Assembly (NCBI GenBank): GCA_017551165.1
Contig: JAFZMO010000159.1
Coordinates: forward strand, 1 to 32,979
From: Lachnospiraceae bacterium
GTDB lineage: Bacteria > Bacillota > Clostridia > Lachnospirales > Lachnospiraceae
Reading direction: 5' to 3'
Length of the DNA stretch: 32,979 nucleotides
The notes below the pieces were generated by a model, which saw nothing but the letters and a program-made list of their open reading frames with translations, was not told the origin of the DNA and did not search any database. Shown piece after piece: positions 2-31,029 of this stretch (positions are counted from its first letter, which is position 1; each line of letters starts with the position of its first letter). The position numbers and the translations under genes are program-made.

Positions 2-604
2 TTCACGGAGCGCGTGAACGAGCTGTACGAAGCGTGCGGCGTCTCGACGATCCTGGTCATCGGCGGAAGCGGAGAGTATCTATCGATCGCGGATTCGGTC
101 TACATGATGGACGAGTACGTGATCACCAACGTGACGAAGGAAGCGAAGGCGCTCGGAGGCGATCGCGACGATGCGGAGCAGTTTTCGGAAAATGCTCTGA
201 AGTCGGCAAGGTGGTCGCAGTCGCGTCAGCTGCTGGCGGAAGGCTTTACGCCGTATCCGGAGCAGGCGGCGCAGGAGAAGCTTGCGGTGCCGGACATCGG
301 TTTCATCCTGATCGGGGATGAGAAGATCGATACCAGGATGATTCAGAACATTCTCTGTCAGGAGCAGCGGACAGCGATCGGGTTCATGATCCGCCTGATG
401 GAAATCCGGCAGAATACTGCGAAAGTATGCTTGACTACAGCTGTAGAACGGCTGCTTGCGGAGATCGAGGAGAAGGGTCTCGATGCGATCTACTCGGGCT
501 TCTTCCCGGAGTGTGACCGTTTCCTGGCGATGCCGCGGCTGTACGACCTGTATGCCGTGATCAACCGCATGCGAAAACTCACGTATACGAAGATTGAGGC
601 ATAA
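2..604 (+). CDS. ABC-class P-loop ATPase, C-terminal part (partial)
   Basis: This is the 3' end of a gene that begins before the window; the open frame runs from base 2 to the TAA at 602-604, about 200 codons. The visible residues resemble the C-terminal half of the COG3044/PF09818 family (predicted ATPases of the ABC class). The stretch STILVIGGSGEYLSIADSV followed by YMMDEY matches the family's conserved segment in which a Walker-B-like strand is followed by the ADxVxxMD motif. The Walker A half must lie upstream of the window. The substrate of this family is not established; some members sit near RNA or nucleotide metabolism genes. A hairpin terminator follows directly, so this is the last gene of its unit. 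The family call rests on recalled motifs; the function is open. Confidence 0.72.
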   Translation, partial: FTERVNELYEACGVSTILVIGGSGEYLSIADSVYMMDEYVITNVTKEAKALGGDRDDAEQFSENALKSARWSQSRQLLAEGFTPYPEQAAQEKLAVPDIGFILIGDEKIDTRMIQNILCQEQRTAIGFMIRLMEIRQNTAKVCLTTAVERLLAEIEEKGLDAIYSGFFPECDRFLAMPRLYDLYAVINRMRKLTYTKIEA

Positions 605-610
605 TCTGTG

Positions 611-641
611 AGGGGCGCCGGTCATAAGCCGGCGCCTTTCC
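611..641 (+). terminator. Rho-independent terminator after the ATPase gene
   Basis: GGCGCCGG (614-621) pairs perfectly with CCGGCGCC (629-636) around a 7-nt loop. The stem can extend through G-U and A-U pairs to 611/639. The T-run is short (TTT then CC). Confidence 0.75.
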
Positions 642-644
642 AAA

Positions 645-673
645 TTGACAAGAAACATCGGCTTTGCTACAAT
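645..673 (+). promoter_or_regulatory. Sigma-A promoter of the flavodoxin lipoprotein gene
   Basis: A perfect -35 TTGACA (645-650) and TACAAT (668-673) are separated by 17 bp. Transcription should start near 680, giving a leader of about 60 nt. Confidence 0.85.
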
Positions 674-741
674 AAGGCAGCTACTTGGGAAGAGTATCGG
701 GGAGAAACAACTTCACAGACAGAATACGGGAGGATTTGAGT

Positions 742-1467: not shown

Positions 1468-1505
1468 CCGTCGGTCACGGGATTGCGTAAAATATGTTTG
1501 CGATG

Positions 1506-1536: not shown

Positions 1537-1581
1537 CGTGTCGTTAAAAGCGGTGTCACCCCTCCTACCCCGAAAACAATG

Positions 1582-1665: not shown

Positions 1666-1704
1666 AGCGCTTTGCGGATTACGGCAATTACGGAGGAGAA
1701 AACG

Positions 1705-2271
1705 ATGTTTCGCGATCTGTTAAACAAGAAAAATATTACGGCATACCGCCTTTCCAAGGAGAGCGGTGTCCCTTATGCGACCATCAGTGACCTGTGCTGC
1801 GGGAAGACGAAGATCGAGAAGTGCGCGGCAGAGACAGTGTACCGCATTGCCAAGACGCTTGGAATGACGATGGAGGAGATCATTGAACCTCATACTCATT
1901 ACAGACAGTCGTTTGACCTGTTCCGAAGCGAGGTCTGCCACAGAGTCAAAGGGCTCGGAGATCTCGATTTTCTGATCGAAATGCTGAACGGTAATGCTGC
2001 CGAGGATTATTATGCGCGTGGATGGTATCCGGAGGCATTATACCTTGTGGCAATGGTTGATTACCTGAGCAGAGTGAATGATATTCCGCTTTGCGATAAG
2101 TATAATTCGCTGCGGGGGAGCAAGCTTCAAAAGCCGCTGTTTCCTTCCAGCTTGCGTATCGAGGCTAAGGTGCTTAAGGATGATTCCCTTTTGGATAAGG
2201 CGATCGATAACGCGATTCCGGAGTTCGCACGGTTTAATATCATAGAGGGGGAGGTGCGAGATGTCTGTTAA
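1705..2271 (+). CDS. XRE-family transcriptional regulator, putative antitoxin
   Basis: The protein has 188 residues. ATG 1705 is chosen because GGAGGAG at 1692-1698 is correctly spaced. Residues 1-60 are a Cro/C1-type helix-turn-helix (ITAYRLSKESGVPYATISDL, then later YRIAKTLGMTMEEII). Residues about 75-188 form a second domain that I know only as the C-terminal part of regulators encoded next to nucleotidyltransferase-fold toxins (the segment GWYPEALYLVAMVDYL is characteristic). It should bind the triple operator just upstream and repress its own operon. The gene overlaps the next by 11 bp, so the two are translationally coupled. A- and T-ending codons are more common here than in flanking genes, suggesting acquisition. 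The HTH is certain; the antitoxin role is inferred from context. Confidence 0.82.
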   Translation: MFRDLLNKKNITAYRLSKESGVPYATISDLCCGKTKIEKCAAETVYRIAKTLGMTMEEIIEPHTHYRQSFDLFRSEVCHRVKGLGDLDFLIEMLNGNAAEDYYARGWYPEALYLVAMVDYLSRVNDIPLCDKYNSLRGSKLQKPLFPSSLRIEAKVLKDDSLLDKAIDNAIPEFARFNIIEGEVRDVC

Positions 2272-3705: not shown

Positions 3706-4712
3706 GATTTTTCGTGGAATTTCTGAAGGAACGGTTTTATCCGATCGTGTGGGGCCTGGTTGCGCTCGCGATCGGGATCCTCGTGTTCTGGCTGCACAAC
3801 ATTGAGCCGGAGGCGCTGATCTACACGGTGATGCTGTGCTTCGCCGCAGGTGTCCTGCTCGTGGCGACGGACTTCATCCGCGAGCTGCGCCATCACAGGG
3901 CGCGTCTTCGCAGCATCCGCACGGCCGCCTACGAGGTCGGCGACCTGCGCGATGAGTACGGCGTGGCAGCGACCGACTACGCGGAGCTGGTGCATGCGTT
4001 GTGGAAGCGCATTGAGGACCTGCAGATGCAGATGTTTACGGAGCGCCGCGAGGCGAAGGACTACTATACGACCTGGGTGCACCAGATCAAGACGCCGCTC
4101 TCTGTCATGCAGATGCTGGTGAAATCGGAGGACACCGAGCTGAGCCGGGCTGTCGCTGCGGAATTGTTCCGCACGGAGCAGTACGTCGACATGGCGCTCG
4201 GGTACATCCGCCTGGGTGAGGAGGCCTCGGACCTGGCATTTCGCGAGTGCGACCTCGATGAGCTGATCCGCGCGTCGGTGCGGCGGTATGCACCGCAGTT
4301 TATCGCGCGGAAGCTTTCATTTTCCTATGAACCGAACTCGGTGAAGGTTGTGACTGACGGCAAATGGTTCACCTTCCTTCTGGAGCAGCTTCTCTCCAAC
4401 GCGGTCAAGTACACGTATGAGGGCGGCGTGACCGTCAAGCTCACGGACGACGCGAAGGTGATCGTGAGCGACACCGGCATCGGCATCGCGCCGGAGGATG
4501 TGCCGCGCGTCTTTGAGAAGGGCTTCACCGGCTTCAACGGACGCAGGGTGTCGGACACCGGCACAGACGGCGGTCGCGCGACAGGACTCGGCCTGTACCT
4601 GTGCAAGAAGACCGCCCACAAGCTGAACGTCGGGCTCTCCGTGGAATCCGAAGTGGGGAAGGGGACCACATTTACCGTGGATATGAAGAAGGAACAGACA
4701 CTGCTGGATTAA
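3702..4712 (+). CDS. Intramembrane-sensing histidine kinase, BceS type
   Basis: The protein has 336 residues, usual for this class. Two membrane segments (about 12-31 and 37-56) are joined by only a few residues, so there is no real external sensor domain. Such kinases are activated through the partner permease. The dimerisation/phosphoacceptor segment holds H127 in TTWVHQIKTPLSVM. The ATPase domain has the N box (LLSNAVKYT, N233), G1 box (SDTGIGI, D257) and a GLGL box at 295-298. It is the phosphodonor of the response regulator encoded immediately upstream (4-bp overlap). No terminator is visible before the regulatory region at 4717. Confidence 0.92.
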   Translation: MRFFVEFLKERFYPIVWGLVALAIGILVFWLHNIEPEALIYTVMLCFAAGVLLVATDFIRELRHHRARLRSIRTAAYEVGDLRDEYGVAATDYAELVHALWKRIEDLQMQMFTERREAKDYYTTWVHQIKTPLSVMQMLVKSEDTELSRAVAAELFRTEQYVDMALGYIRLGEEASDLAFRECDLDELIRASVRRYAPQFIARKLSFSYEPNSVKVVTDGKWFTFLLEQLLSNAVKYTYEGGVTVKLTDDAKVIVSDTGIGIAPEDVPRVFEKGFTGFNGRRVSDTGTDGGRATGLGLYLCKKTAHKLNVGLSVESEVGKGTTFTVDMKKEQTLLD

Positions 4713-4716
4713 GACC

Positions 4717-4751
4717 TTACAAAAATGTCACATTGCGGACGCAAAATGTAA
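4717..4751 (+). promoter_or_regulatory. Predicted BceR-type binding site
   Basis: TTACA-AAAA-TGTCA (4717-4730) fits the TNACA-N4-TGTAA pattern described for Firmicute BceR-like regulators, with one deviation that keeps the symmetry. A second half-site, AAAATGTAA (4743-4751), lies exactly 21 bp downstream of AAAATGTCA, two helical turns away on the same DNA face. Confidence 0.7.
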
Positions 4752-4761
4752 CCGGAATCGA

Positions 4762-4790
4762 TGTTTCTGCGGACACAGGCGGCGTATAAT
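4762..4790 (+). promoter_or_regulatory. Activated promoter of the BceAB-type transporter
   Basis: A perfect -10 TATAAT (4785-4790) lacks a recognisable -35 (TGTTTC at 4762-4767 with a 17-bp spacer). This fits an activator-dependent promoter with the BceR-like sites just upstream. The leader to the ATG at 4936 is about 140 nt and GC-rich; I see no further element in it. Confidence 0.68.
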
Positions 4791-4935
4791 CGCCAATGTA
4801 AGCAGGAGATGCGGGTTGCTGCGCACGCCGGTGACACGATGTGGGGGAGATGACACCGAACTGGGGGAGAGCGCAGCGCGGCTTCCCGTAACCTGCACAT
4901 AAATACGCGGCGCGGCCGCAAGACGGAGGCTGACA

Positions 4936-5700
4936 ATGGCAATTTTGGATGTAAAAAATCTGCAGAAGATCTACACGACGAGATTCGGCGGAAGTAAGGT
5001 GCAGGCACTCTCGGATGTGACATTTTCCGTAGAGAAGGGGGAGTATGTGGCGATCATGGGCGAGTCGGGCTCCGGCAAGACGACGCTCCTCAACATTCTG
5101 GCGGCGCTCGACCGCCCGACCAACGGTAAGGTTTACCTGGAGGACAAGGAGCTCTCGGGCATCAAGGAGTCGGAGATGGCGACCTTCCGCCGCGAGAACC
5201 TCGGCTTTGTGTTCCAGGAGTTCAACCTGCTGGATACATTTTCCATCCGTGACAACATTCTGCTGCCGCTTGTCTTAAACGGCGCGAAGCCCGCGGAGCT
5301 TGAGGGAAAGCTTCAGCCGATCGCAGAGAGACTCGGCATCGCGGACCTTCTTGCAAAATTCCCTTACGAGGTGTCCGGCGGTCAGAAGCAGCGCACGGCT
5401 GTGGCGCGCGCACTGATCACGGATCCGAAGCTGATCCTGGCCGATGAGCCTACCGGTGCGCTTGACTCGAAGTCCACCGACGATCTCCTGCGCGTGTTCC
5501 GCGATATCAATTCGCAGGGACAGACAATTCTTATGGTTACGCACTCGACGAAGGCGGCGAGCCACGCTTCGCGAGTGTTGTTCATCCGCGACGGCGAGGT
5601 GTTCCATCAGATTTATCGAGGCGACTGCACGAACGAGCAGCTGTACCAGAAGATCTCGGACACGCTCACACTTCTTACGACGGGTGGTGAGAAGCGATGA
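4936..5700 (+). CDS. ABC transporter ATPase, BceA type
   Basis: The protein has 254 residues, the normal length. It shows Walker A GESGSGKTT (42-50), a Q-loop in FVFQEFNLLD, signature VSGGQKQR, Walker B LILADEPTGALD with the catalytic glutamate, and the switch histidine in MVTHS. It belongs to the MacB/LolD-like group that powers mechanotransmission permeases. With the permease (4-bp ATGA overlap) it removes or frees lipid-II-cycle intermediates from bound peptide antibiotics and signals flux to the kinase. The ribosome site is GGAGG in GACGGAGGCTGACAATG. Confidence 0.93.
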   Translation: MAILDVKNLQKIYTTRFGGSKVQALSDVTFSVEKGEYVAIMGESGSGKTTLLNILAALDRPTNGKVYLEDKELSGIKESEMATFRRENLGFVFQEFNLLDTFSIRDNILLPLVLNGAKPAELEGKLQPIAERLGIADLLAKFPYEVSGGQKQRTAVARALITDPKLILADEPTGALDSKSTDDLLRVFRDINSQGQTILMVTHSTKAASHASRVLFIRDGEVFHQIYRGDCTNEQLYQKISDTLTLLTTGGEKR

Positions 5701-7838
5701 AACTCGGACTATTCCTCCGGCTGGCGTGGTCGAACATCAAGAAGAACCACCAGCTGTATGTGCCGCACATCCTTGCGGGCACGGGTCTCACGGCGATCTT
5801 CTATGTCATGCTGACGCTCGCCAATGACGATCGCCTGAAGAAGATCAAGGGCGGCTATGCGATCCCGTCCATCATGTCGATCGGTATCGCGGTAGTCGCG
5901 ATCCTCTCGGTGATCCTCGTATTTTTCACCAACAGCTTTCTTATGAAACAGCGCACGCGCGAGTACGGTATGTACAACGTGCTCGGTATGGAGAAGCGCC
6001 ACGTCGGTTGTATTATGTTTTTGGAAAATGCGATCTCGACGGTGATCCTTCTTGTGGCCGGCATCCTCGGCGGTGTGCTGATGTACAAGCTCTGCTGCCT
6101 GTTCATCTGTAAAATGCTGGAGGTCAAGACGATCCTCGGCTTCTATGTAAAGCTTGAGTTCGTGCTGAAGACCGTCGGCGCTTTCGCGGCGATGTACCTG
6201 GTGGCATTCATCTGGAACTGCATCCGGCTGGCGCGTCTTCGTCCCGTTGAACTTCTGGCCAGCTCGGGCGTCGGCGAGAAGGAGCCGAAGACGAAGTGGA
6301 TCCTTCTGATCATCGGACTTCTCACGCTCGGCTCCGGCTATGCGATCGCTCTTACCTCCGAGTCGCCGATCAAGGCGATCCCGGATTTCTTCAAGGCGGT
6401 CATTCTGGTCATCATCGGAACCTATGCGCTGTTTCTCGCCGGAAGCGTCGCATTTCTCAAGCTGCTGCGCCGAAACAAGAACTTCTACTATCGCAAGAAA
6501 AACATGATCGCGGTTTCGGACCTGCTGTACCGCATGAAGCAGAACGCCGCAGGACTCGCGTCCATCGCGATCCTCGCGACCGGCGTCATCGTCATGATCT
6601 CCACGACCGTATGTCTGTACATGGGCATTGACGCAACCGTTAAGAACTACTTCCTGGAAGGCGAAGCGGACATGATCGTCGATGGGAAGTACATATACAA
6701 TATCCCGTCCGAGGATGACGAGGATTCGACGGAGCGCCATATCGATTTCATTCCGGAGGAGCAAGTCCGGCGCATGACGGAGGAGGTTGTCGGCAAGTAC
6801 GGAGCCAAGGTGGTTTCCTTCCAGCTGGTGCGCAGCCTCACGGATGCGCTCTGCTTTACGGATGGAAGGGCCTCGGTCGTAAATGCGAACTCATCGTTTA
6901 CCACGCTGCCGAAGGGTACGATCGAGGTTGTGATCATTCCGCTTGAGGATTACAATCGGATCTGCAAGGATTCGCTTGTTTTACAAGACAATGAGATCGG
7001 CTGGGTTGCACTCTCGGATGACGCGGGCGATCTCTCCAAGGAGCTTCCCTCGGAGATCCGTTTTGCCGACGGGCCGAAGTATCGTCTCGGACCGGAGGTG
7101 AAGCACCTTCCGTTGATGAGAAACGAGGCGCTTTCCGCCGGATACTACGGACTTGTCGTTCCGACCATGGAGGACCTGGATAAGATCTCGGAGGATCTGT
7201 ACAGGGAGAAGGCGGGGGATTTCTGGTATTACAATTTCCCCAATCGGAAATACTATGTTCGTCTGGATGGTGTGAAAGAGATCAACGAGCGCGATGAACT
7301 GGATCCGGAGTGGGGCACCAGAAAGAGCGGATACGAGTACCGGGAATTGGTACTTGCCTATTTGGATACGCTCGATCTCGGCAAGGCCAGCTCATACTGG
7401 GATTCCTGCATCTGGGATACCTCGTGGAGCCTGAAGGATGAGCTCCTGGGCATGTACGGTTCGCTGTTCTTCCTCGGAATTCTCCTAAGCTTTGTGTTCC
7501 TCTTCGCGACGGCGCTGATCATTTACTACAAGCAGATCTCCGAGGGCTACGATGACCGCGGCCGGTTCCAGATCCTGCTGAAGGTCGGTATGACGCAGAA
7601 GGAGACGAAGGGAACGATCCGTCGCCAGATCGTGATCGTGTTCTTCCTCCCGCTTGTGACGGCAGTGATCCATATGGTTGTTGCGTATCCGGTCATCCGT
7701 AAGCTTCTGATGCTTCTGATGATGCCCAACGACAAGCTCTTCCTGCTCTGCACGGCGGCCACGGTGGTTGCGTTTGCGTTCATCTACATGGTGATCTACC
7801 GCCTGACGGCGCGCACCTACTACCGCATCGTTCGTTGA
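5697..7838 (+). CDS. ABC transporter permease, BceB type
   Basis: The protein has 713 residues. Its topology matches BceB. One N-terminal membrane segment and further helices lie within the first 310 residues, including a FtsX-like unit (about 55-200). A large extracellular domain follows (about 320-585, starting near FLEGEADMIVDG), and three C-terminal helices from about 587 form the second FtsX unit. The extracellular domain is the part that differs between Bce systems and sets peptide specificity, so the antibiotic recognised cannot be read from sequence alone. It pairs with the ATPase encoded upstream, also serves as the sensor for the BceS-type kinase, and is followed by a strong terminator. 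Confidence 0.92.
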   Translation: MKLGLFLRLAWSNIKKNHQLYVPHILAGTGLTAIFYVMLTLANDDRLKKIKGGYAIPSIMSIGIAVVAILSVILVFFTNSFLMKQRTREYGMYNVLGMEKRHVGCIMFLENAISTVILLVAGILGGVLMYKLCCLFICKMLEVKTILGFYVKLEFVLKTVGAFAAMYLVAFIWNCIRLARLRPVELLASSGVGEKEPKTKWILLIIGLLTLGSGYAIALTSESPIKAIPDFFKAVILVIIGTYALFLAGSVAFLKLLRRNKNFYYRKKNMIAVSDLLYRMKQNAAGLASIAILATGVIVMISTTVCLYMGIDATVKNYFLEGEADMIVDGKYIYNIPSEDDEDSTERHIDFIPEEQVRRMTEEVVGKYGAKVVSFQLVRSLTDALCFTDGRASVVNANSSFTTLPKGTIEVVIIPLEDYNRICKDSLVLQDNEIGWVALSDDAGDLSKELPSEIRFADGPKYRLGPEVKHLPLMRNEALSAGYYGLVVPTMEDLDKISEDLYREKAGDFWYYNFPNRKYYVRLDGVKEINERDELDPEWGTRKSGYEYRELVLAYLDTLDLGKASSYWDSCIWDTSWSLKDELLGMYGSLFFLGILLSFVFLFATALIIYYKQISEGYDDRGRFQILLKVGMTQKETKGTIRRQIVIVFFLPLVTAVIHMVVAYPVIRKLLMLLMMPNDKLFLLCTAATVVAFAFIYMVIYRLTARTYYRIVR

Positions 7839-8257: not shown

Positions 8258-9454
8258 ATGGAACGAATCGTAAACAGCCTGTTGGAGACCGATGCGTACA
8301 AGTTCTCTATGGGACAGGGTATTTATCATCAGTTCAGCGATTACAAGACGACGTGGAGTTTCCACTGCCGGAATGAGAACGTGTTCTTCACACCCGAGAT
8401 GGTGGAGGAGATCAAGCGGCAGATCAAGCTCTACTGCGATCTCCGGTTCACGGAGGAGGAGCTCGAGTATCTCGAGAACATCCGCTGGATCCGCGGCTCG
8501 TACGTGGATTACCTTCGTCTGTGGAAGCCGCGCTACGCCGACTTCGAGTTCGGTACGGACGCTCCGTGCGGTCTGACGATCGAGACCAAGGGCACCTGGC
8601 TCAATACATCGATGTATGAGATCCCGACGCTGGCGATCGTCAACGAGGTGTACTTCCAGATGCGCTACGATCACGAGGAGCTCATGAAGAGCTACAGTGA
8701 GCGCCTCGAGGCGAAGATCGCGAAGCTGAAGTCCGGCGAGTTTGAGCTGGGCGCATTTTCCGAATTCGGATTGCGCAGACGACTGTGCGCCGAGGCGGAG
8801 GATCTGGCGATCAAGCGTCTCGCGGAGGAGACGTTCCCGACGTCGAAGTTTGTCGGTACCTCGAACGTATATCTCGCAAAGAAATACGGCGTGACGCCAG
8901 TCGGAACGATGGCACATGAGTGGATCATGTGCGTCGGCCAGGGCAATCACAAGCACAATCCGGCATACTCGAACTGGTACGCGCTCGACGCGTGGGTGAA
9001 GGAGTACGGCGTGCTGAACGGAACCGCTCTGACGGACACGATCACGACGGACTGCTTCCTCAAGGACTTCCAGCTGACGTACTCGACGCTGTTCAGCGGC
9101 GTTCGACACGACAGCGGTTCGCCGTACGAGTGGGGCGACAAGATGCTCGCGCACTACAAGAGACTCGGCATCGACGCTACGCAGAAGACGCTTCTGTTCA
9201 GCGACAGCCTGGATTTCCAGCGCGCGACCGACATCATGAAATACTTCAAGGGCAAGGCGAAGGTGGCGTTCGGTATCGGAACGTACATCTCCAATGACAC
9301 ATTTGCCGAACCGCTCAACATCGTCATGAAGACGACGGCATGCAACGGCATGGACGTAGCCAAGATCTCCGATGTCAAGGGCAAGGGCATGTGCAAGAAC
9401 CCCGATTACGAGCATTATCTGCAGCGCTGTATCGATTGGCGCATGAATCACTGA
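8258..9454 (+). CDS. pncB: Nicotinate phosphoribosyltransferase
   Basis: The protein has 398 residues, matching the short (E. coli PncB-like) form. It converts nicotinate and PRPP to nicotinate mononucleotide with ATP hydrolysis, the first step of the Preiss-Handler NAD salvage route in the cytoplasm. Visible family features are the N-terminal LLETDAYKFSMGQ, the GTMAHEW segment with the phosphorylatable histidine H220 (H219 in E. coli), FSGVRHDSGSP for the PRPP/phosphate site, and FGIGTYISND near the C-terminus. It is transcribed from its own promoter at 8151. Downstream genes are unrelated to NAD, so it is probably monocistronic or loosely coupled. Confidence 0.95.
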   Translation: MERIVNSLLETDAYKFSMGQGIYHQFSDYKTTWSFHCRNENVFFTPEMVEEIKRQIKLYCDLRFTEEELEYLENIRWIRGSYVDYLRLWKPRYADFEFGTDAPCGLTIETKGTWLNTSMYEIPTLAIVNEVYFQMRYDHEELMKSYSERLEAKIAKLKSGEFELGAFSEFGLRRRLCAEAEDLAIKRLAEETFPTSKFVGTSNVYLAKKYGVTPVGTMAHEWIMCVGQGNHKHNPAYSNWYALDAWVKEYGVLNGTALTDTITTDCFLKDFQLTYSTLFSGVRHDSGSPYEWGDKMLAHYKRLGIDATQKTLLFSDSLDFQRATDIMKYFKGKAKVAFGIGTYISNDTFAEPLNIVMKTTACNGMDVAKISDVKGKGMCKNPDYEHYLQRCIDWRMNH

Positions 9455-13781: not shown

Positions 13782-14840
13782 TCAGAAGTTGCCGTGAACG
13801 AGCTTGGTGAGCGACTGTGCGTCCGGCGAAACCTTCTTTGCCTCGATGATGGAGACAAGGTCGCGGCGAACGAGGTCTGCAAGAGCTTCGTTCATGGTGC
13901 TCATACCCTGAGCGCGGCTCTGCTGCAACATGCTCGGGATCTGGATAGTCTTGCTCTCACGGATGAGGTTCGTGATGGCCGGTGTAGCCAACATAACCTC
14001 GGAAGCGAGGATACGACCGCTGCCGTCCTTGAGAGGAAGAAGCTGCTGTGTGAATACGCCGCGGATAACGTTGGCGAACTGTGCACGGATCTGCTCCTGA
14101 GCCTCGAGCGGGCTGGCGTCGATGATACGCTCTACGGTCTGTGCCGCAGACGTGGTGTGCAGCGTGGAAAGAACGAGGTGGCCGGTCTCGGCTGCGGTGA
14201 TGGCAGCGGAGATGGTCTCGTAGTCACGCATCTCACCTACAAGGATAACGTCCGGGTCCTCGCGGAGGGCGGAACGGAGAGCGAGCGAGAAGGACTCAAC
14301 ATCGCGGCCGACCTCACGCTGGTGGATCATCGCCTTGTTGTGCGGATACACGTACTCGATAGGATCCTCGATCGTCATGATGTGACGAGCGGAGTTCATG
14401 TTGATGTAGTTGACAACCGAAGCAAGCGTCGTGGACTTACCGCTTCCGGTAGGACCGGTTACGAGCACAAGTCCGCGAGGAGTCTCAGCCATCTGGCGGA
14501 TCGCAGCGGGAAGACCGAGCTTCTCGAACGTCGGAATGGTCTGCTGCAGGATACGGATGCTGGCTGCAAGGTTGTTACGCTGGTGATACACGTTTGCACG
14601 GATACGAAGTCCGTCGGGAAGCATAACGCCGACATCAAGGTCTTTGCCGGAGTTAACCCAGTTGATCTGATCCTCGCTGAGGATGGAATAGATCATCTGC
14701 TTCGATTCCTCGGCGGTAGGAGTGGGGTCCAAAATAGTCAGGACACCGTACCGTCTTACGGCCAGAGCGGTACCCACGGTGATGTGGATATCGGAGCACT
14801 GCTGCTTTCTGGCATAGTTCATAATCTCTTCAAACGTCAT
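13782..14840 (-). CDS. pilT: Type IV pilus retraction ATPase
   Basis: The protein has 352 residues, the normal length. It is the hexameric cytoplasmic motor that depolymerises type IV pili, driving twitching motility and, in competent bacteria, DNA uptake. The N-terminal PAS-like domain (1-100) is followed by Walker A GPTGSGKST (129-137), an Asp box (MTIEDPIEYV), Walker B with VILVGEMRD, a His box (TLHTTSAAQTVERIID) and the PilT-typical C-terminal AITNLIRE (AIRNLIRE-like), which separates PilT from PilB. It stands alone; no pilin, pilB or pilC gene is in the window. A minus-strand ribosome site (AAGGGGG) lies 9-10 nt upstream of the start, next to a sequence that can pair with the 5' leader. 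Confidence 0.95.
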   Translation of the reverse strand: MTFEEIMNYARKQQCSDIHITVGTALAVRRYGVLTILDPTPTAEESKQMIYSILSEDQINWVNSGKDLDVGVMLPDGLRIRANVYHQRNNLAASIRILQQTIPTFEKLGLPAAIRQMAETPRGLVLVTGPTGSGKSTTLASVVNYINMNSARHIMTIEDPIEYVYPHNKAMIHQREVGRDVESFSLALRSALREDPDVILVGEMRDYETISAAITAAETGHLVLSTLHTTSAAQTVERIIDASPLEAQEQIRAQFANVIRGVFTQQLLPLKDGSGRILASEVMLATPAITNLIRESKTIQIPSMLQQSRAQGMSTMNEALADLVRRDLVSIIEAKKVSPDAQSLTKLVHGNF

Positions 14841-15622: not shown

Positions 15623-17398
15623 ATGCAACCAATGAATTGGTACAAGTACATTAAGCCGTATGCGGCGTACTTCATCCTCGGACCGTTGTGCATGATCGTG
15701 GAGGTCATCGGCGAAGTCGTCATGCCGAGACTCCTTGCGGTCGTGATCAACAATGCGAACGAGGGAACGCTGAAGACCGGCACAAGCCTCGGGATCATGG
15801 CACTTATGATCCTGACGGCACTGATCATGATGGCCGGAGGCATCGGCGGCGCTTACTTTGCGTCGAAGGCGTCGGTCAGCTTCGCTGCGGATCTCCGTGC
15901 GGACGGATACCGCCGGATCCAGCAGTATTCATTTGCCAATATTGACAAATTCTCGACGGGCTCGCTCGTGACGCGTCTCACGAACGATGTCACGCAGGTG
16001 CAGAATTTCGTCGCGATGTCTCTCCGCATGGCGCTCCGCGCGCCCGGCATGATGATCGCCGCACTCGTGATGGCGATCATGCTCAATCCGCCGTTGTCGG
16101 TAGTCTTCGCGGTGTCGATCCCCACGATGCTGATCGCGGTGGGCGGCATCATCCGCACCGGTTTCCCGCGCTTCGGACGCGTGCAGAAGAAGGTGGACGG
16201 CCTGAACTCGACGGTTCAGGAAAATGTCACCAACGTCCGCGTTGTGAAGAGCTTCGTCCGCGAGGATTTTGAGATCGAGAAGTTCCGTGATGCCAACGCC
16301 AACTTGAAGCAGGCCGGCATCTCCGCAGCGAAGGTCATGATCTTCATGTCCCCCGTTATGACGCTGTTCATGAACGGCACGATCATCGCGGTCATCCTGA
16401 TCGGCGGCCCGATGGTTCTCGACCACGGTATGAAGATCGGTGATCTGTCCGCATTCCTCACGTACGTTACCCAGATCCTTTCGTCGCTTGTCATGGTGAC
16501 GTTCCTGTTGATGTTCTCCTCGAGGGCGCTCGCATCCGCGAAGCGTATCAGCGAGATCATGGACGAACCGCTGGATCTGACGGACGACGATGCACAGTGC
16601 AAGGACTTGCAGGTTGAGCGCGGTGACATCACGTTTAAGAACGTATCCTTCCGCTACTACAAGAACAGCGAGGAGAAGGTACTCAACAATATCAACTTAG
16701 ATATCAAGGCAGGTTCGACGGTCGGCATCATCGGTTCCACGGGCTGCGGCAAGACGACGCTCGTGTCGATGATCCCGAGACTGTACGACTGCGACGAGGG
16801 CGAGGTGCTCGTGGACGGCGTGAACGTGCGCGACTACTCGCTGTACAACCTCCGCGAGGGTGTTTCGATGGTCCTGCAGAAGAACACGCTGTTCTCCGGC
16901 ACGGTCACCGAGAACCTGCAGTGGGGTGATGAGAACGCCTCCGACGAGGAGATCCGCCGCATGGCCGAGTACGCGCAGGCCGACAAGTTCGTGTCCGCGT
17001 TCAAGGACGGCTACGACTCGATCATCGAGCAGGGCGGCGCGAATGTCTCCGGCGGTCAGAAGCAGCGTCTGTGTATCGCACGCGCGCTTCTCAAGAAGCC
17101 GAAGATCCTGATCCTCGACGACTCGACGAGCGCCGTGGATACGGCGACCGAGGCGCAGATAAGGAAGGCATTTTCCGAGAAGGCCAACGAGGGCGAGGCG
17201 ACCGATCCGTACACCGCCAACCTTCGCGCGGCGACCAAGCTGATCATCGCACAGCGCATCAGCTCCGTGCAGGATGCCGACACGATCATCGTCATGGACG
17301 ACGGCGTGATCACCGGTATCGGAACGCACGACGAGCTCCTTAAGAACAACGTCGAGTATCGTGAGATCTACGAGTCTCAGACGGGAAAGGGGGCTTGA
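15623..17398 (+). CDS. Heterodimeric ABC exporter, subunit with degenerate catalytic site
   Basis: The protein has 591 residues. ATG 15623 is chosen as the first start after the AGGAAAGGA site (15602-15610); the frame stays open upstream inside marR but has no start signal there. Six membrane helices (about 15-310) are followed by a nucleotide-binding domain: Walker A GSTGCGKTT (371-379), signature VSGGQKQR, and Walker B ILILDDSTSAVD. The usual catalytic glutamate is replaced by aspartate (D500), as in TM287 and BmrC, where this site binds ATP but hydrolyses it poorly. An insertion follows the D-loop (NEGEATDPYTANLR). It must pair with the product of the next gene, 4 nt downstream, to export drugs or lipids. 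Confidence 0.92.
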   Translation: MQPMNWYKYIKPYAAYFILGPLCMIVEVIGEVVMPRLLAVVINNANEGTLKTGTSLGIMALMILTALIMMAGGIGGAYFASKASVSFAADLRADGYRRIQQYSFANIDKFSTGSLVTRLTNDVTQVQNFVAMSLRMALRAPGMMIAALVMAIMLNPPLSVVFAVSIPTMLIAVGGIIRTGFPRFGRVQKKVDGLNSTVQENVTNVRVVKSFVREDFEIEKFRDANANLKQAGISAAKVMIFMSPVMTLFMNGTIIAVILIGGPMVLDHGMKIGDLSAFLTYVTQILSSLVMVTFLLMFSSRALASAKRISEIMDEPLDLTDDDAQCKDLQVERGDITFKNVSFRYYKNSEEKVLNNINLDIKAGSTVGIIGSTGCGKTTLVSMIPRLYDCDEGEVLVDGVNVRDYSLYNLREGVSMVLQKNTLFSGTVTENLQWGDENASDEEIRRMAEYAQADKFVSAFKDGYDSIIEQGGANVSGGQKQRLCIARALLKKPKILILDDSTSAVDTATEAQIRKAFSEKANEGEATDPYTANLRAATKLIIAQRISSVQDADTIIVMDDGVITGIGTHDELLKNNVEYREIYESQTGKGA

Positions 17399-19519: not shown

Positions 19520-20353
19520 ATGGACAAGGAAAAGAAAAGCAAGGGGTTTCTGATCGCAGTGTTGATCGCGGTCGTAGCATCCTTCGCGGTGATCCTGGTG
19601 ATCAGCAAACTGGTTGACCGCAATCACGATCGCATGGAAGAGGAGAAGAAAAACAAGAAGATCGAGGACCTGACGGTCAAGAGCTTGGACGGAAAGGTGA
19701 CGCTCTCATTTTCCCATTGTGTGTATGAGGGAGATGCGATGAAGAGCGGTGAACTGGTCGAAGGATATCAGTACAAGAACGCGTCGTGCGATTCCGCGGA
19801 GTCCTTCTATGCAAACGTGATCGCTGCCAGCCCGAACTTCTACGGGGTGTTCCAAAGAGAAGGCGTGTTCGTCACGGCGGCCGAGATTACGACGTCGTCC
19901 ACGGGAGGTGGCCTGTTCTTCAAAGACAACCACTGCTTTGACATGTCGTTCGGCGATACGTCCAAGGTTAACTACGAGAAGTATTTAGTGGAACTCGGCG
20001 AGCTCTGCATGTGTGTGAAATTGCCGGACGGGGTCAAGGCATACCTGCCGTTCCCGGTCGACGGTCATCACAGAAGGGATCTCTCCGCATGGGAGACGAC
20101 CGCGGTCAATTACGGGGAGATGATCGGGCCCAACCGGTTCGTAAACATGGTGCAGTTCTACGGAGGAATGGATGCATCGCACTGCTTCATCGACGAGGAG
20201 GGTGAGACGATCTACGCGAAGCTCTCCTGCACCGGCGACCATACGACGGACTACGTTGCGAAGATCGTTTCTATGGAAAATGGCGTTGCGATCTCGTTTG
20301 GCACGACCGCCGAGGTACAGGCGAAGTTCGAGAACGCCTTCGCCGGCAAATAA
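19520..20353 (+). CDS. Membrane-anchored extracytoplasmic protein, unknown function
   Basis: The protein has 277 residues. ATG 19520 follows GGGGGAT and the promoter at 19422-19450; an earlier in-frame start would lie inside the terminator. Residues 1-9 are basic, 10-28 form one membrane helix (FLIAVLIAVVASFAVILVI), and a charged linker (32-50) leads to an outside domain of about 225 residues with five cysteines. I do not recognise the domain. It alternates short predicted strands with aromatic residues and looks like a soluble beta-rich fold. It stands alone between the exporter terminator and the PspC promoter. Confidence 0.75.
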   Translation: MDKEKKSKGFLIAVLIAVVASFAVILVISKLVDRNHDRMEEEKKNKKIEDLTVKSLDGKVTLSFSHCVYEGDAMKSGELVEGYQYKNASCDSAESFYANVIAASPNFYGVFQREGVFVTAAEITTSSTGGGLFFKDNHCFDMSFGDTSKVNYEKYLVELGELCMCVKLPDGVKAYLPFPVDGHHRRDLSAWETTAVNYGEMIGPNRFVNMVQFYGGMDASHCFIDEEGETIYAKLSCTGDHTTDYVAKIVSMENGVAISFGTTAEVQAKFENAFAGK

Positions 20354-22240: not shown

Positions 22241-22341
22241 GACTTCGGGCAGGATGCTTCCCGCCGGAGAGCGGCTTGAAAAGAGGATCTGTCGGAAAAT
22301 GAGGACAGAAATCCGATCAATGAGATGAGGACACTACCGAA

Positions 22342-23376: not shown

Positions 23377-24253
23377 GTATGAGGAGGCCTGTGCCCGGTA
23401 CCTTCGCAAGAAGGGTTTCAAGGATGTGCAGGTGACGCAGGCGAGCAGAGACCAGGGCGCGGATATTCTCGCGCGCCGCAAGAAGGAAAAATACGCCGTA
23501 CAGTGCAAGTACTATGCGAAGCCGGTGGGCAACAAGGCGGTCCAGGAGGTGTACGCGGCGAAAACATTTTACGGATGCGACCGGGCGCTTGTGATGAGCA
23601 ACGCGACATTTACCAAGGGAGCGAAGGAGCTGGCGGAGTCGCTCGACGTGGAACTGATGCCGGGGATCGAGCCGAAGAAGCTGTTCCCCATCGCGCGTTT
23701 GATCGCGTGGATTCTTTTTATCGCAACGATCCTGCTCTTCCTGTGGGTCAGCGGGATCGCGGCTTTTGTGTTGCACCGCACGTTTCCGCAGGTGTTCGAG
23801 GCGATCCCCGCGAAGTATTTCCACAATCGCTGGATCAACGCAGCGCTTCCGTTTACGGGGGCGGTCTGGGCCATGTTGGCGCGCAACATCGCCAAGTACG
23901 GTACCTCGTGGGAAAATGTAGCCGCCCATGAGGATGATCCCGACGACGAGGAGGAGCCGGAGAGACAGGAACAGCCGAAAAAGTCCGTGGAGCCTGAGCA
24001 GCAGGATCGGCAGGAGTCTCCGGCACCGTCCCTCAGGGAGCTTGCGATCATCTACGACCTCGTGGGCGTCGCGGAGGCGCGCCTGAAGGAAGAGGAGGAC
24101 CCCGCGGAGCAGGCGATGATCCAAACGACGATCGAGGCGGCGTATGAGCTGCTGATCGCCAACGAGGCGTCTTTGCCCGAGGATTGGGAGTCGCCCCGCG
24201 AGCGATTGGCTCGTTTTCAGGAGGACACAAATTGTTCACAAATAAATTGTTAG
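23363..24253 (+). CDS. Membrane-anchored Mrr-type restriction endonuclease-like protein
   Basis: The protein has 296 residues. The N-terminal domain (1-110) is a PD-(D/E)xK nuclease of the Mrr/HJC group: GYEYEEACARYLRKKGF, then DQGADILA (catalytic D) and YAVQCKYY (the QxK motif), and later ALVMSNATFTKGAKELA. Two membrane segments follow (about 114-136 and a weaker one near 158-175), then an acidic Gln/Glu/Pro-rich linker (about 190-220) and a helical tail. Mrr-type enzymes cleave foreign or modified DNA; membrane attachment would place the nuclease where DNA enters. The start is uncertain (see 23350). The TAG stop lies inside the CIRCE element of the next gene. The domain call is firm; the biological target is inference. 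Confidence 0.83.
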   Translation: MNGYEYEEACARYLRKKGFKDVQVTQASRDQGADILARRKKEKYAVQCKYYAKPVGNKAVQEVYAAKTFYGCDRALVMSNATFTKGAKELAESLDVELMPGIEPKKLFPIARLIAWILFIATILLFLWVSGIAAFVLHRTFPQVFEAIPAKYFHNRWINAALPFTGAVWAMLARNIAKYGTSWENVAAHEDDPDDEEEPERQEQPKKSVEPEQQDRQESPAPSLRELAIIYDLVGVAEARLKEEEDPAEQAMIQTTIEAAYELLIANEASLPEDWESPRERLARFQEDTNCSQINC

Positions 24254-24895: not shown

Positions 24896-24929
24896 TCCCC
24901 GGAAAATGATCCGCCTCCCCTTTAACGCA

Positions 24930-26363: not shown

Positions 26364-26433
26364 AAGTAACACCTCCTTATATAGTTCTGTAATTATATCA
26401 CATTTTCCGAAGAAATACAATACGACGGAGCAG

Positions 26434-28069: not shown

Positions 28070-28070
28070 C

Positions 28071-28162: not shown

Positions 28163-28771
28163 ATGCCGTTGTTGAATTTGGACGGAGACATTTTGATCTA
28201 TATTCAGGAGCATATAAGGAGTTCGGTGCTGGACAAGATCTTCCCGAACATCACGTTTCTCGGGGATGCGGGAATCTTCTGGCTGATCCTGACGGCGATC
28301 CTGCTGTGCTTCCGGAAGACGCGGCGCGCCGGCGTGTGCTCGGCGATCGCACTGCTCGGATCGCTCATACTGAACAACTTCATCCTCAAGCCGCTCGTGA
28401 ACCGGACAAGGCCGTATGAGCTCGTGGACGGGCTCGTGCTGATCGGCAAGAAGGCGAAGGACGCATCGTTCCCGTCGGGACATACGGGTGCGAGCATCGC
28501 GTCTGCGGTGGCATTGTGCAGACATCTGAAGAAGCGTTGGTCGGTGCCGCTTTTGATCCTGGCGCTGATGATCGCATTTTCCAGATTATATATCGGAATC
28601 CACTATCCGACGGACGTGCTGGCGGGATTGATCGACGGCATCGCGCTCGGCCTGATGGCGTGGGCGATCGAGGGCTGCCTGTTCCGCAAGACCGCGTGGT
28701 ATCCGGGGATAACGGAGGAGTGTTCTACAACAGTAGAACAAGGAGAAGGCGCAGTAACAGAGGGAAAATGA
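28163..28771 (+). CDS. PAP2-family membrane phosphatase
   Basis: The protein has 202 residues. ATG 28163 follows CAGGAG; an in-frame GTG at 28145 has no such site. It has five or six membrane helices and the three PAP2 motifs: KPLVNRTRP (76-84), PSGH (104-107) and SRLYIGIHYPTD (140-151). The active site faces outward. Such enzymes dephosphorylate lipid pyrophosphates, and the context (a GT2-GtrA fusion next) suggests undecaprenyl pyrophosphate recycling. The last 20 residues (ECSTTVEQGEGAVTEGK) are polar and cover a perfect DNA palindrome at 28721-28740, so the tail may be shaped by a DNA element. Confidence 0.9.
   Translation: MPLLNLDGDILIYIQEHIRSSVLDKIFPNITFLGDAGIFWLILTAILLCFRKTRRAGVCSAIALLGSLILNNFILKPLVNRTRPYELVDGLVLIGKKAKDASFPSGHTGASIASAVALCRHLKKRWSVPLLILALMIAFSRLYIGIHYPTDVLAGLIDGIALGLMAWAIEGCLFRKTAWYPGITEECSTTVEQGEGAVTEGK
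28721..28740. repeat. Perfect 8-bp inverted repeat at the 3' end of the PAP2 gene
   Basis: TGTTCTAC-AACA-GTAGAACA has perfect arms. It lies 70 bp upstream of the GT2-GtrA start and could be an operator or an RNA hairpin between the two genes. It has no T-run. Confidence 0.7.
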
Positions 28772-28810
28772 CGGAGTTTACCCGGTTGGTAACAGACAGG
28801 GAGGAACGGC

Positions 28811-29935
28811 GTGAATGTGACGATCGTACTGCCTTCCCTGAATCCCGATGAAAAGATGATCCGCACCGTGGAGGGTATCCTCGCGGAGGGATTTACGGAC
28901 ATCGTAGTCGTGGACGACGGAAGCGCAGAGGAATATAAGAAACCGTTTGAGACGGTGGCGGCCATGGACGGCGTGACCGTGCTGACGCACGAGGTCAACA
29001 AGGGCAAGGGCCGCGCGATGAAGACGGCGTTTGCGTACATTGCGGAGAATCGGCCGGAGTCGGCGGGCGTGGTCACGGTCGACGGCGACGGGCAGCATTT
29101 GCCGAAGGATATCCGCGCGTGTGCGGAGGCGATGATCGCGGAGAAGGACAAGGTCGTGCTCGGCGTGCGGGATTTCAGCAAGCCGGACGTGCCCTTCAAG
29201 AGCCGCAACGGCAACAACATAACGAAGGCGGTGTTCCGCATCTTCTGCGGCATCCGCATCAGTGATACACAGACCGGGCTTCGTGCGATTCCGGCGCAGT
29301 ATTTGCCGCTGATGGGCGAGATCGCCGGTGAGCGGTACGAGTACGAGACCAATCAGTTGCTCGTTCTCAAGGACAACAAGATCGCACTGCACGAGGTCGT
29401 GATCGACACGGTGTACATCGATGACAACGCATCGTCGCACTTTCATCCGTTCCGCGACTCGTGGAGAATTTACAAAATCATATTCAAGCACATCGGGACT
29501 TCCGTGTTCGCGAAGTTCCTCGGGGCGTCGCTCGTGTGCTTCCTTGTCGACACGCTGCTGTTCTTCCTCCTGAACGTCGGGCTGGAAGGCGCGGGCATGC
29601 GCAAGGCGGACAGCCAGCTGCGGATCGCGCTCGCGACGGTGGGTGCGCGTGCGGTCAGCACGATCGTGAACTTCTGCTTAAACCGCAAGGTCGTGTTCAA
29701 GAGCGACAATTCGGTCGGCGGAACGCTGGTGCGGTATTACATCCTGGCGGTGTGCCAGATGACGGCGTCCTTCCTCTTGGTCAATCTCGTGGCGGAGCGT
29801 CTGCTCGGCATGACCGCGGGAGTCGGGGAGTCTGTCGTCAAGTTTGTCGTCGACATGTGCTTGTTTGCGATCAGCTTCTATGTACAAAAGCATTGGGTAT
29901 TTGCCAAACATAATAAAAACGGGGAGAATGTTTGA
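28811..29935 (+). CDS. GT2 glycosyltransferase fused to a GtrA-like flippase domain
   Basis: The protein has 374 residues. The start is GTG 28811, with GGGAGGAA upstream. Residues 1-230 form a GT2 domain of the dolichol-phosphate-mannose-synthase/GtrB type: VVVDDGS (35-37 for the nucleotide), DGDGQH (91-96 for the metal), DTQTGLRAI and YETNQLL. From about 233 the GtrA domain follows with four membrane helices and the typical NFCLNRKVVFKS and YVQKHWVFAK ends. One polypeptide would thus attach a sugar to undecaprenyl phosphate and help move it across the membrane. With the upstream PAP2 phosphatase and downstream glycosidase this suggests a lipid-linked sugar route for cell-wall or teichoic-acid decoration. 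The sugar is unknown. Confidence 0.92.
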   Translation: MNVTIVLPSLNPDEKMIRTVEGILAEGFTDIVVVDDGSAEEYKKPFETVAAMDGVTVLTHEVNKGKGRAMKTAFAYIAENRPESAGVVTVDGDGQHLPKDIRACAEAMIAEKDKVVLGVRDFSKPDVPFKSRNGNNITKAVFRIFCGIRISDTQTGLRAIPAQYLPLMGEIAGERYEYETNQLLVLKDNKIALHEVVIDTVYIDDNASSHFHPFRDSWRIYKIIFKHIGTSVFAKFLGASLVCFLVDTLLFFLLNVGLEGAGMRKADSQLRIALATVGARAVSTIVNFCLNRKVVFKSDNSVGGTLVRYYILAVCQMTASFLLVNLVAERLLGMTAGVGESVVKFVVDMCLFAISFYVQKHWVFAKHNKNGENV

Positions 29936-31029
29936 TGGGAAAGAGGATTTTACGGTATTTTCTGCGGCTTCTGCTGCTGTTGCTCGTGACGCTGGTCGTC
30001 CTTGCGGGCGCGCTGTACGGCGTCATCTATAAGTGCTGCAACGGACCGTCGGAGGCTGCCAAGGCAACATTTATCACAACGATCCTGGAGACCGGCCAGC
30101 TGAAGTTCCTCGCTTCGTGGGTTTGCACGGACGAGGAGATCCAGGCGGTCGTCGACCAGAACAAGATGAAGCCGATGGAGACGGAGAGCGATCGAAGCCT
30201 GATTAAGATCGCACGCGGTGAGGGCCCGGACATCGGAACGCCGGAGACGCCCGAGGGCAGAAAGATCGTGTACGATGAGAACGGCGTCTGCATCGTGGAG
30301 GTTGCGGGAAGAACATTTTTCGGGAAAATGATGATCGTCAAGGACCCGGCGCAGGTGGTCGTGGGAACGACCTACCCGTGGGGTGAGTACGGTAAGGATC
30401 TCGATAAGATCGTCAAGCAGACGGGCGGTATCGGCGGCGTGAACGGCGGCCTGTACCAGTCGGATCAGAACAAGGGCGGCAAGCCGTACGGTGTTGTCGT
30501 GTCACACGGACAGATCCAGTACAATTCCCCGTCGCAGCGCGGTCTGTATCTGATCGGCATGGACGAGTCGGACATCCTGGTTGTCAAGGACATTCAGGGC
30601 ATGAAGGCGTCCGAGGTGGAGAAGTACATCAGGGAGGCAAAGATCCGCGATGCGGTTACGTTCCAGGAGGAAGCCTCCGATGTGAATAACCATTTTGTGC
30701 CGCTTGTCATCGACGGCAAGGGGCGTGAGCTGACGGGACAGGGCAGCGGCAGCAACCCGCGTACGGCCATCGGCCAGCGCGCGGACGGGGCGATCCTTCT
30801 GTTCGTCACGGACGGCCGCGGTGCGGGCGGTCACCTCGGTGCGACGGCCTCCGACCTGATCAGCGTCATGCTTGACTTCGGTGCGATCACGGCGGCTAAC
30901 CTCGACGGCGGTAGCTCGTCGACGATGTACTACAAGGATCAGTATGAGATGACCAGCGTGACCTTCTACTATCAGAACTCGTCATGGCGTCTGCCCGATG
31001 CCATGATCGTAATGCCGCCGAGCAAGTGA
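29935..31029 (+). CDS. Membrane-anchored phosphodiester glycosidase (NAGPA domain)
   Basis: The protein has 364 residues. ATG 29935 overlaps the previous stop by one base (TGATG), with GGGGAG upstream. A membrane helix (about 8-30) anchors it and places the rest outside. The domain from about 105 to 362 is PF09992 (phosphodiester N-acetylglucosaminidase-like): GVNGGLYQ, NPRTAIGQRADGAILLFVTDGR and ANLDGGSSSTMYY are the family's signature segments. Members cleave sugar-phosphodiester bonds; in Gram-positives the likely substrates are wall glycopolymers or capsule linkages. It fits the preceding lipid-linked sugar genes as a trimming or transfer step (inference). Confidence 0.9.
   Translation: MGKRILRYFLRLLLLLLVTLVVLAGALYGVIYKCCNGPSEAAKATFITTILETGQLKFLASWVCTDEEIQAVVDQNKMKPMETESDRSLIKIARGEGPDIGTPETPEGRKIVYDENGVCIVEVAGRTFFGKMMIVKDPAQVVVGTTYPWGEYGKDLDKIVKQTGGIGGVNGGLYQSDQNKGGKPYGVVVSHGQIQYNSPSQRGLYLIGMDESDILVVKDIQGMKASEVEKYIREAKIRDAVTFQEEASDVNNHFVPLVIDGKGRELTGQGSGSNPRTAIGQRADGAILLFVTDGRGAGGHLGATASDLISVMLDFGAITAANLDGGSSSTMYYKDQYEMTSVTFYYQNSSWRLPDAMIVMPPSK

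What the first reader, a model, noticed from the sequence alone, without database searches (positions are those of the whole stretch)
187..30330. Octamer GGAAAATG is massively over-represented: a candidate uptake or recognition word in a Clostridium-type genome
By eye I count 18 exact copies of GGAAAATG or CATTTTCC. First bases: 187, 6023, 16219, 20275, 22294, 23911, 24901, 26940, 28763 and 30323 as GGAAAATG; 4318, 5021, 5237, 8754, 17169, 19707, 26401 and 28575 as CATTTTCC. At this base composition about one is expected. Ten are on one strand and eight on the other, so there is no strand bias. They occur in all three codon frames (GAA-AAT, TTT-TCC, and others such as GGA-AAA-TGA at 28763) and between genes (22294, 24901, 26401). 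They often use codons that neighbouring genes avoid (GAA, AAT, ACA, TTT in place of GAG, AAC, ACG, TTC), which points to selection on DNA. None lies between 8762 and 16218 or in the low-GC pair 1672-3037. Density (about 1 per 1.8 kb) is like the uptake sequences of Haemophilus and Neisseria, and pilT is in the same window. No such sequence is established in Firmicutes to my knowledge.
Basis: partly seen in the sequence, partly recalled or inferred. Interest (0 to 1): 0.8.

Follow-up and report, generated by a model that had tools for sequence, protein, structure and literature searches.

The report
Uptake-like DNA word in Lachnospiraceae
A gut and rumen bacterium carries the same eight-letter DNA word about every 1.8 kb on both strands, far more often than chance or codon use allows, which looks like the self-recognition tags that some competent bacteria use to choose which DNA to take up, a thing not established in Gram-positive bacteria.

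Summary
The window holds 18 exact GGAAAATG/CATTTTCC where shuffles give 0.95. Its genome, a Lachnospiraceae MAG, holds 667+717=1384, against 20 for the reversed word.

The excess survives synonymous-codon shuffling (123 in genes vs mean 12.1). It shows no gene-strand or replichore bias and extends to TTCGGAAAATG. Sites are conserved about twice as well as anagram words (62/131 vs 885/3564).

Some congeners carry a second form, GGCAAATG, at similar counts. A different word, TCGGTAAAAGA, behaves the same way in another Lachnospiraceae genome, G116.

Of 22 genus genomes, 22 match ComEA, 20 ComEC and 17 show full-length PilB. The window's own orphan PilT is in 19. It is missing from exactly the three with the lowest word density, which are one clade. 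G116 has a 73% ortholog.

Best explanation: a DNA-uptake (self-recognition) word read by the pilus/competence apparatus, the first such candidate in a monoderm. Uptake and receptor are inferred. Chi, codon-pair and terminator readings are disfavoured; an unknown genome-wide DNA-binding protein remains possible.

The parts
187..194 (+). GGAAAATG, in gene (sense)
4318..4325 (-). GGAAAATG, antisense in histidine kinase gene; intact in L001, changed in L002 and L003
5021..5028 (-). GGAAAATG, antisense in ABC ATPase gene; replaced in the three relatives aligned there
5237..5244 (-). GGAAAATG, antisense in ABC ATPase gene; intact in L001 only of three aligned
6023..6030 (+). GGAAAATG, in FtsX-type permease gene; changed in the three relatives aligned there
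8754..8761 (-). GGAAAATG, antisense in nicotinate phosphoribosyltransferase gene; GGAAAATG in 4 and GGAAAATA in 4 of the 8 relatives aligned
16219..16226 (+). GGAAAATG, in ABC transporter gene; intact in 6 of 7 relatives aligned
17169..17176 (-). GGAAAATG, antisense in ABC transporter gene; intact in 7 of 7 relatives aligned
19707..19714 (-). GGAAAATG, antisense in hypothetical gene
20275..20282 (+). GGAAAATG, in hypothetical gene
22294..22301 (+). GGAAAATG, intergenic
23911..23918 (+). GGAAAATG, in Mrr-type endonuclease gene
24901..24908 (+). GGAAAATG, intergenic
26401..26408 (-). GGAAAATG, just upstream of, or at the start of, the gene at 25929 (-), depending on its start codon
26940..26947 (+). 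GGAAAATG, antisense in 5'-nucleotidase-family gene
28575..28582 (-). GGAAAATG, antisense in PAP2 gene
28763..28770 (+). GGAAAATG at the end of the PAP2 gene (GGA AAA TGA)
30323..30330 (+). GGAAAATG, in NAGPA-family gene
13782..14840 (-). Orphan PilT/PilU-family pilus ATPase (called PilT2 here), distinct from the PilT1 next to pilB; its presence tracks the word within the genus

Best explanation
GGAAAATG is the core of a genome-wide, strand-neutral DNA word (consensus TTCGGAAAATG, then A, C or T) that probably serves as a DNA uptake sequence in this Lachnospiraceae genus. Proposed steps: (1) a pilus-tip minor pilin, or ComEA, binds DNA carrying the word (inferred; receptor not identified); (2) the type IV pilus retracts, perhaps with the extra PilT encoded in this window, and brings the DNA to ComEA and ComEC (genes present; role inferred); (3) ComEC imports one strand and it recombines with the chromosome (from established knowledge of ComEC); (4) because fragments with the word are favoured, conspecific alleles with the word replace those without it, so words accumulate on both strands wherever protein coding tolerates them, and some near-matches build up too (the pattern is shown; the drive is inferred). 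Within-genus forms and the different word in G116 would be changes of receptor specificity (inferred).
For: Count: 1384 vs 20 reversed. In a 307.7 kb sample 164 vs Markov 16.5, with near-matches in excess at positions 2 and 8 (GAAAAATG 58/19, GTAAAATG 37/8, GGAAAATA 58/13) and a flank preference. Not codons: 123 vs mean 12.1, max 20 of 50 shuffles; G011 174 vs mean 23.1, max 30. Strand-neutral: sense:antisense 65:58 and 93:81; in G011, with leading strand taken from GC skew and gene direction, 120:115 (my sum of the table). Conservation between five genomes: 62 of 131 vs 885 of 3564 for anagram words. Ratio to the reversed word is 7.5 or more in 19 of the 22 genus genomes and at most 6.2 (G064) in the 94 genomes outside (my division). 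GGCAAATG form near or above GGAAAATG counts in G004, G007, G008, G013, G016, G018. Second word in G116: 1166 vs 94 reversed, in genes 68 vs 9.9, 33:35 strands. Machinery: ComEA 22/22, ComEC 20/22, full-length PilB 17/22, comEA and comEC in one locus in the five loci read. PilT2 in 19/22, absent only from G006, G015, G017, the three lowest both in word density and in that ratio; 73% ortholog in G116.
Against: No uptake experiment; only MAGs. The PilT2-lacking, word-poor congeners keep ComEA, ComEC and a pilus locus, so the machinery alone does not predict the word. G006, G015 and G017 group together on the ComEC tree, so the PilT2 link is one event, not three. PilT2-like proteins (52-59%) occur in G030, G036 and other genera without a clear word in samples of 21-40 kb. 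No receptor identified. Genes with atypical codon use are only slightly poorer in words (0.43 vs 0.46-0.59 per kb). Close inverted pairs are few, unlike DUS/USS. Some one-letter variants are below expectation (GGAAAACG 5 vs 17.2, GGAAGATG 13 vs 28.9). G017 still has 13 of its 21 sampled GGAAAATG between genes, unexplained, and G015 keeps some GGCAAATG excess in genes (9 vs 2.4). In G004 GGAAAATG in genes is only 12 vs 6.0.
Confidence: 0.6

Rival explanations
1. Binding site of an unknown genome-wide DNA-binding protein (nucleoid, condensation or segregation factor) that keeps a dense, strand-neutral array of sites.
For: Dense, strand-neutral, randomly spaced sites; close pairs inverted as CATTTTCC..GGAAAATG in 6 of 6 cases in G000 and 6 of 12 in G011, and a weak half-palindrome TTTTC-G-GAAAA, would suit a dimeric protein.
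Against: I know of no such factor (recalled) that keeps about 1400 exact long non-palindromic words; forms that differ within one genus and the co-occurrence with an extra PilT in the genus and in G116 are unexplained.
Confidence: 0.18
2. Chi-like recombination signal read by AddAB.
For: 8-mer scale, genome-wide excess, non-palindromic.
Against: No leading-strand bias in 391 kb of G011 with consistent GC skew and gene bias: 120:115; known Chi sites are strand-biased and G-rich (recalled). AddAB genes were not examined.
Confidence: 0.07
3. HIP1-like word kept by a methyltransferase, repair or mutation bias rather than by uptake.
For: A palindrome frequent in cyanobacteria (HIP1 by my recall) is also dispersed and over-represented (PMC1939737, passage seen).
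Against: HIP1 is palindromic; this word is longer, non-palindromic, with soft ends, and exists in more than one form within one genus.
Confidence: 0.08
4. Transcription terminator or other RNA element.
For: Higher density between genes (0.73 vs 0.49 per kb; 1.17 vs 0.51) and some inverted pairs.
Against: 123 of 164 sites in the G000 sample lie inside genes, 58 of them antisense; close pairs are a small minority; in G116 density is not higher between genes (0.48 vs 0.67).
Confidence: 0.03
5. Codon-pair or base-composition artefact.
For: Sites in genes prefer frames that read Glu-Asn or Phe-Ser.
Against: Synonymous shuffles give about a tenth to an eighth; all three frames and intergenic DNA are used; in genes of congeners G006 and G017 (GC 0.49 and 0.53) counts stay within the shuffle range (12, shuffle max 15; 8, shuffle max 10).
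Confidence: 0.01

Closest known systems
DNA uptake sequence (DUS) of Neisseriaceae, read by minor pilin ComP
   Same: About 10-12 bp word dispersed in very high numbers; dialect forms by clade, even two forms at nearly equal numbers in one genome (Simonsiella muelleri, PMC3630211 passages; compare G007); genomes without it in the wider group (same passages); host with type IV pilus and ComEC genes.
   Different: No CTG core, which all DUS dialects share (PMC3630211); fewer copies (1384 here; 2245 to 5918 for the dialect counts I saw in those passages); few inverted pairs; monoderm host; no ComP found or searched for.
Uptake signal sequence (USS) of Pasteurellaceae
   Same: Similar copy number per genome (recalled for Haemophilus influenzae); near-matches in excess, read as molecular drive (PMC1939737 passages); two types within the family (PMC12616744 passages).
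   Different: No GCGG core (core named in PMC12616744); different phylum and envelope.
Chi sites (RecBCD/AddAB)
   Same: 8-mer, non-palindromic, over-represented genome-wide.
   Different: No replichore or gene-strand bias here.
HIP1 of cyanobacteria (recalled name)
   Same: Abundant dispersed octamer with unclear function.
   Different: HIP1 is palindromic (GCGATCGC); this word is not.

Membership tests
DNA uptake sequences (DUS/USS) as a functional kind | Strong genome-wide excess on both strands beyond codon use | tested here: met
DNA uptake sequences (DUS/USS) as a functional kind | Graded excess of near-matches | tested here: met
   strongest at positions 2 and 8, about two-fold for several others; a few below expectation (GGAAAACG, GGAAGATG)
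DNA uptake sequences (DUS/USS) as a functional kind | Host has DNA-uptake genes (type IV pilus, ComEA, ComEC) | tested here: met
   also present in word-poor congeners; DprA not tested
DNA uptake sequences (DUS/USS) as a functional kind | Preferential uptake of DNA carrying the word | not testable with these tools
   needs a culture and an uptake assay
DNA uptake sequences (DUS/USS) as a functional kind | Specific surface receptor | not tested
   pilin-like genes seen in the pil locus but none linked to the word
DNA uptake sequences (DUS/USS) as a functional kind | Depletion in recently acquired DNA | tested here: inconclusive
   1 word in 9 kb beside a phage terminase of G005 (about 4 expected at 1260 per 2.8 Mb); codon-atypical quintile 0.43 vs 0.46-0.59 per kb in G011
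DUS of Neisseriaceae | CTG core | tested here: not met
   consensus TTCGGAAAATG
USS of Pasteurellaceae | GCGG core | tested here: not met
   consensus TTCGGAAAATG
DUS/USS | Frequent occurrence in terminators, often as inverted pairs | tested here: not met
   pairs within 60 b: 6 among 164 sites in G000, 12 among 235 in G011 in three orientations; single sites in terminators were not scored
Chi | Leading-strand bias | tested here: not met
   120:115
HIP1 | Palindromic octamer GCGATCGC (recalled) | tested here: not met

The most novel reading that the evidence does not exclude
Monoderm Lachnospiraceae have independently evolved self-DNA recognition words for natural transformation: at least two different words (TTCGGAAAATG with a GGCAAATG form in one genus, TCGGTAAAAGA in G116), served by a type IV pilus with a dedicated second retraction ATPase (the PilT2 of this window), both word and ATPase being missing together in one clade.
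Probability: 0.45. Interest if true: 0.92.

Novelty: new variant of a known kind. Interest (0 to 1): 0.82.

Why it matters
[quoted passage not shown] A third, Gram-positive origin would show that uptake specificity evolves repeatedly, give a new system in which to find a receptor, and suggest that uncultured gut and rumen bacteria of this group are naturally transformable and exchange genes mainly with their own kind. It could also offer a practical handle: adding the word to DNA to transform genetically intractable Lachnospiraceae commensals.

Tried and rejected
Chi/KOPS-type polar signal: disfavoured for lack of strand bias. Codon-pair artefact: rejected by synonymous shuffles. Tandem or mobile repeat: flanks show only weak preferences. 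Terminator role: a minority at most. Regular spacing: gaps are random. PWM by EM: drifted to codon periodicity or AT-rich background in most genomes and was discarded. PilB tree: some rows were wrong reading frames, so it was not used; the ComEC tree was kept (19 of 22 genomes, midpoint root, G015 row from a split gene). Search for further words in other genera with PilT2-like proteins: G033 is a repeat within one stretch, G057 a clustered repeat; G093, G097 and G036 have too few sites to judge. A terminase search for prophages matched only G005 of 22. First conservation count held the same genomes under two names; redone without that, which is the one quoted.

Literature searches for a Gram-positive uptake word, for the family or for this octamer; none showed one in the listings or passages seen. 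Papers: passages only of PMC12616744, PMC3630211, PMC1939737, PMC13020248; all others as search listings.
Full report
Observation. The window is contig C139 of a 2.54 Mb, 160-contig assembly (91% complete, 7.7% contamination). It holds 667 + 717 = 1384 copies, while the word read backwards has 12 + 8. Relatives found through the nicotinate phosphoribosyltransferase are mostly named Lachnospiraceae MAGs.

What the word is. In 307.7 kb of the same genome GGAAAATG occurs 164 times (third-order Markov 16.5). The preferred context is T-T-C before it and A, C or T, not G, after it: TTCGGAAAATG. Variants at position 2 (GAAAAATG 58 vs 19, GTAAAATG 37 vs 8, GCAAAATG 34 vs 14) and at the last position (GGAAAATA 58 vs 13, GGAAAATC 36 vs 16) are also in excess. 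Several others are about two-fold up, the rest near expectation, and a few below it (GGAAAACG 5 vs 17, GGAAGATG 13 vs 29).

Not codons, not one strand. In predicted genes of that sample there are 123 copies; shuffling synonymous codons within each gene gives a mean of 12.1 and at most 20 in 50 rounds; 65 are sense and 58 antisense; density is 0.49 per kb in genes and 0.73 outside. In congener G011 (391 kb) the numbers are 174 vs 23.1 (30 rounds, max 30), 93:81, and 0.51 vs 1.17 per kb. G011 contig C1 has positive GC skew throughout and mostly + genes; the piece of C2 is the reverse. Summing the table gives 120 words on the leading and 115 on the lagging strand. Gaps between sites fit a random (exponential) law. 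Pairs within 60 bases are few: 6 in G000, all CATTTTCC then GGAAAATG, and 12 in three orientations in G011.

Conservation. Aligning samples of five genomes (G000, G002, G007, G011, G019) at about 76-81% identity, the word is intact in 62 of 131 cases against 885 of 3564 for anagram words in the same alignments; pairs are counted in both directions and are not independent (identities). At 5021 several letters of the word differ at once in the three relatives aligned while the flanks are 81-89% identical.

Distribution. 116 genomes were searched: own, 21 congeners, 50 other genera of the family, 44 genomes of other families in the order. The ratio of GGAAAATG to its reversed word is 7.5 to 126 in 19 of the 22 genus genomes, 2.7, 4.5 and 6.3 in G006, G017 and G015, and at most 6.2 (G064) in the 94 others (my division). 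GGCAAATG is near or above GGAAAATG in G004 (438 vs 449), G007 (622 vs 672), G008 (584 vs 783), G013 (614 vs 491), G016 (611 vs 807) and G018 (512 vs 728). In word-poor G015 it is 337 vs 374, with 150 for its reversed control; in G006 and G017 it lies below its reversed control. Codon-shuffle controls in genes: G006 12 vs 9.7, G017 8 vs 4.8, G015 4 vs 2.6, G004 12 vs 6.0 for GGAAAATG; for GGCAAATG G007 23 vs 3.2, G018 13 vs 1.9, G004 26 vs 7.1, G015 9 vs 2.4, G006 11 vs 5.0, G017 2 vs 2.6. G017 has 13 further GGAAAATG between genes, unexplained.

A second word elsewhere. In locus L017, from another Lachnospiraceae MAG (Horse_feces270), CGGTAAAA stood out. Its genome G116 has 562 + 604 copies against 94 for the reversed word; ten other genomes searched with it have 23 to 292. 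The fuller consensus is TCGGTAAAAGA; in genes 68 vs 9.9 after codon shuffling, 33 sense and 35 antisense. The two words share the pattern (T)CGG and a run of four A.

Machinery. All 22 genus genomes have T2SSE-family matches; 17 have a full-length PilB, G003 has pieces at contig ends, and G010, G013, G020 and G021 (79-85% complete) show none or a fragment. Most PilB genes have an adjacent PilT (PilT1), and most genomes have another member of about 420-480 aa that I take for a Tad/CpaF type (from length and E-value, not tested). Ten pil loci were fetched; the gene lists printed for word-bearing G011 and word-poor G017 and G006 each hold pilB, pilT1, pilC, pilins, pilM and minor-pilin-like genes (families of G011; G000's contig ends inside pilT1). 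ComEC is found in 20 of 22, the two misses being 79-82% complete. The ComEA domain is in 22 of 22, 21 over the cut-off. In the five com loci read, comEA and comEC lie together around a two-component system and a lipoprotein-like gene. DprA was not tested.

The PilT of this window. 13782-14840 (-) is a PilT/PilU-family ATPase (TIGR01420, 436 bits, cut-off 319), 49% identical to PilT1. In the six loci compared its neighbours differ between the two identity groups. Besides G000 it is present at 93-98% in ten congeners, at 75-76% in seven, at 60% in G012, and absent from G006, G015 and G017, which are also the three lowest of 22 in GGAAAATG per Mb (about 116, 178 and 99, from the rounded sizes). 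By chance that is 1 in 1540, but these three group together (97/95) on the ComEC tree, which holds 19 of the 22. With midpoint rooting, word-bearing G012 is their sister (100/99), so the likeliest history is one loss of both; an early-branching clade that never had them is not excluded, and the G012 and G015 branches are long. Independently, G116 has a PilT2 ortholog at 73% (L255:2794-3849 -); among the 94 relatives outside the genus the best is 59% in G030. On a tree of 29 PilT rows the seven PilT2 used from word-bearing genomes form one supported group (100/99), G030 next to it. G030 and other genera with PilT2-like proteins show no clear word in samples of 21-40 kb, so PilT2 is not sufficient.

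Reading. The pattern matches the known uptake sequences in most respects that sequence can test: strand neutrality, independence of codons, near-matches in excess, dialect-like forms, lineages without the word, pilus and ComEA/ComEC genes. It does not match in terminator pairs, and depletion in acquired DNA is untested in effect. The DUS and USS cores are absent, so it is not a member of either family; it would be a third origin. Retraction by a PilT is a known part of pilus-mediated uptake (established knowledge), which makes the orphan PilT an attractive partner; that link is inference. Uptake, receptor and drive remain to be shown.

Noticed in passing
L017, L251-L262 (genome G116): A second strand-neutral genome-wide word, TCGGTAAAAGA (CGGTAAAA 1166 vs 94 reversed), in another Lachnospiraceae genome.
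   Followed up: yes
L010, L263-L266 (genome G121): CGAAAATG shows a weaker excess (18 copies in 74.5 kb, both strands) and TTTTCGAAAA is frequent; possibly a weaker related word.
   Followed up: partly
G087 contig C1: In a genome of another family 33 of the 34 listed GGAAAATG sites on this contig are on one strand, unlike the strand-neutral genus; perhaps leading-strand composition.
   Followed up: no
G015:C63 and G016:C57: ComEC matches in two pieces in these two congeners, with stops in G016; real decay or assembly error.
   Followed up: no
L073:13425-14047: Tandem array of alternating inverted TTTGGTAC units, spaced 32 and 21 bases.
   Followed up: no
L236:11753-18920 and L021: Clustered GGGACGGTTC-type repeats in two Lachnospiraceae genomes.
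   Followed up: no
L221:5186-11272 and its counterparts in L222-L225: comEA and comEC are separated by a response regulator, a histidine kinase and a fast-evolving lipoprotein-like gene, a possible competence regulator set.
   Followed up: no
L148-L150, L176, L230 (G001): Excess around TGGCAAATGCCA, an inverted repeat containing the GGCAAATG form.
   Followed up: no
G012:C126 and G012:C175: Two full-length PilB genes in one congener assembly; a second pilus set or contamination (3%).
   Followed up: no
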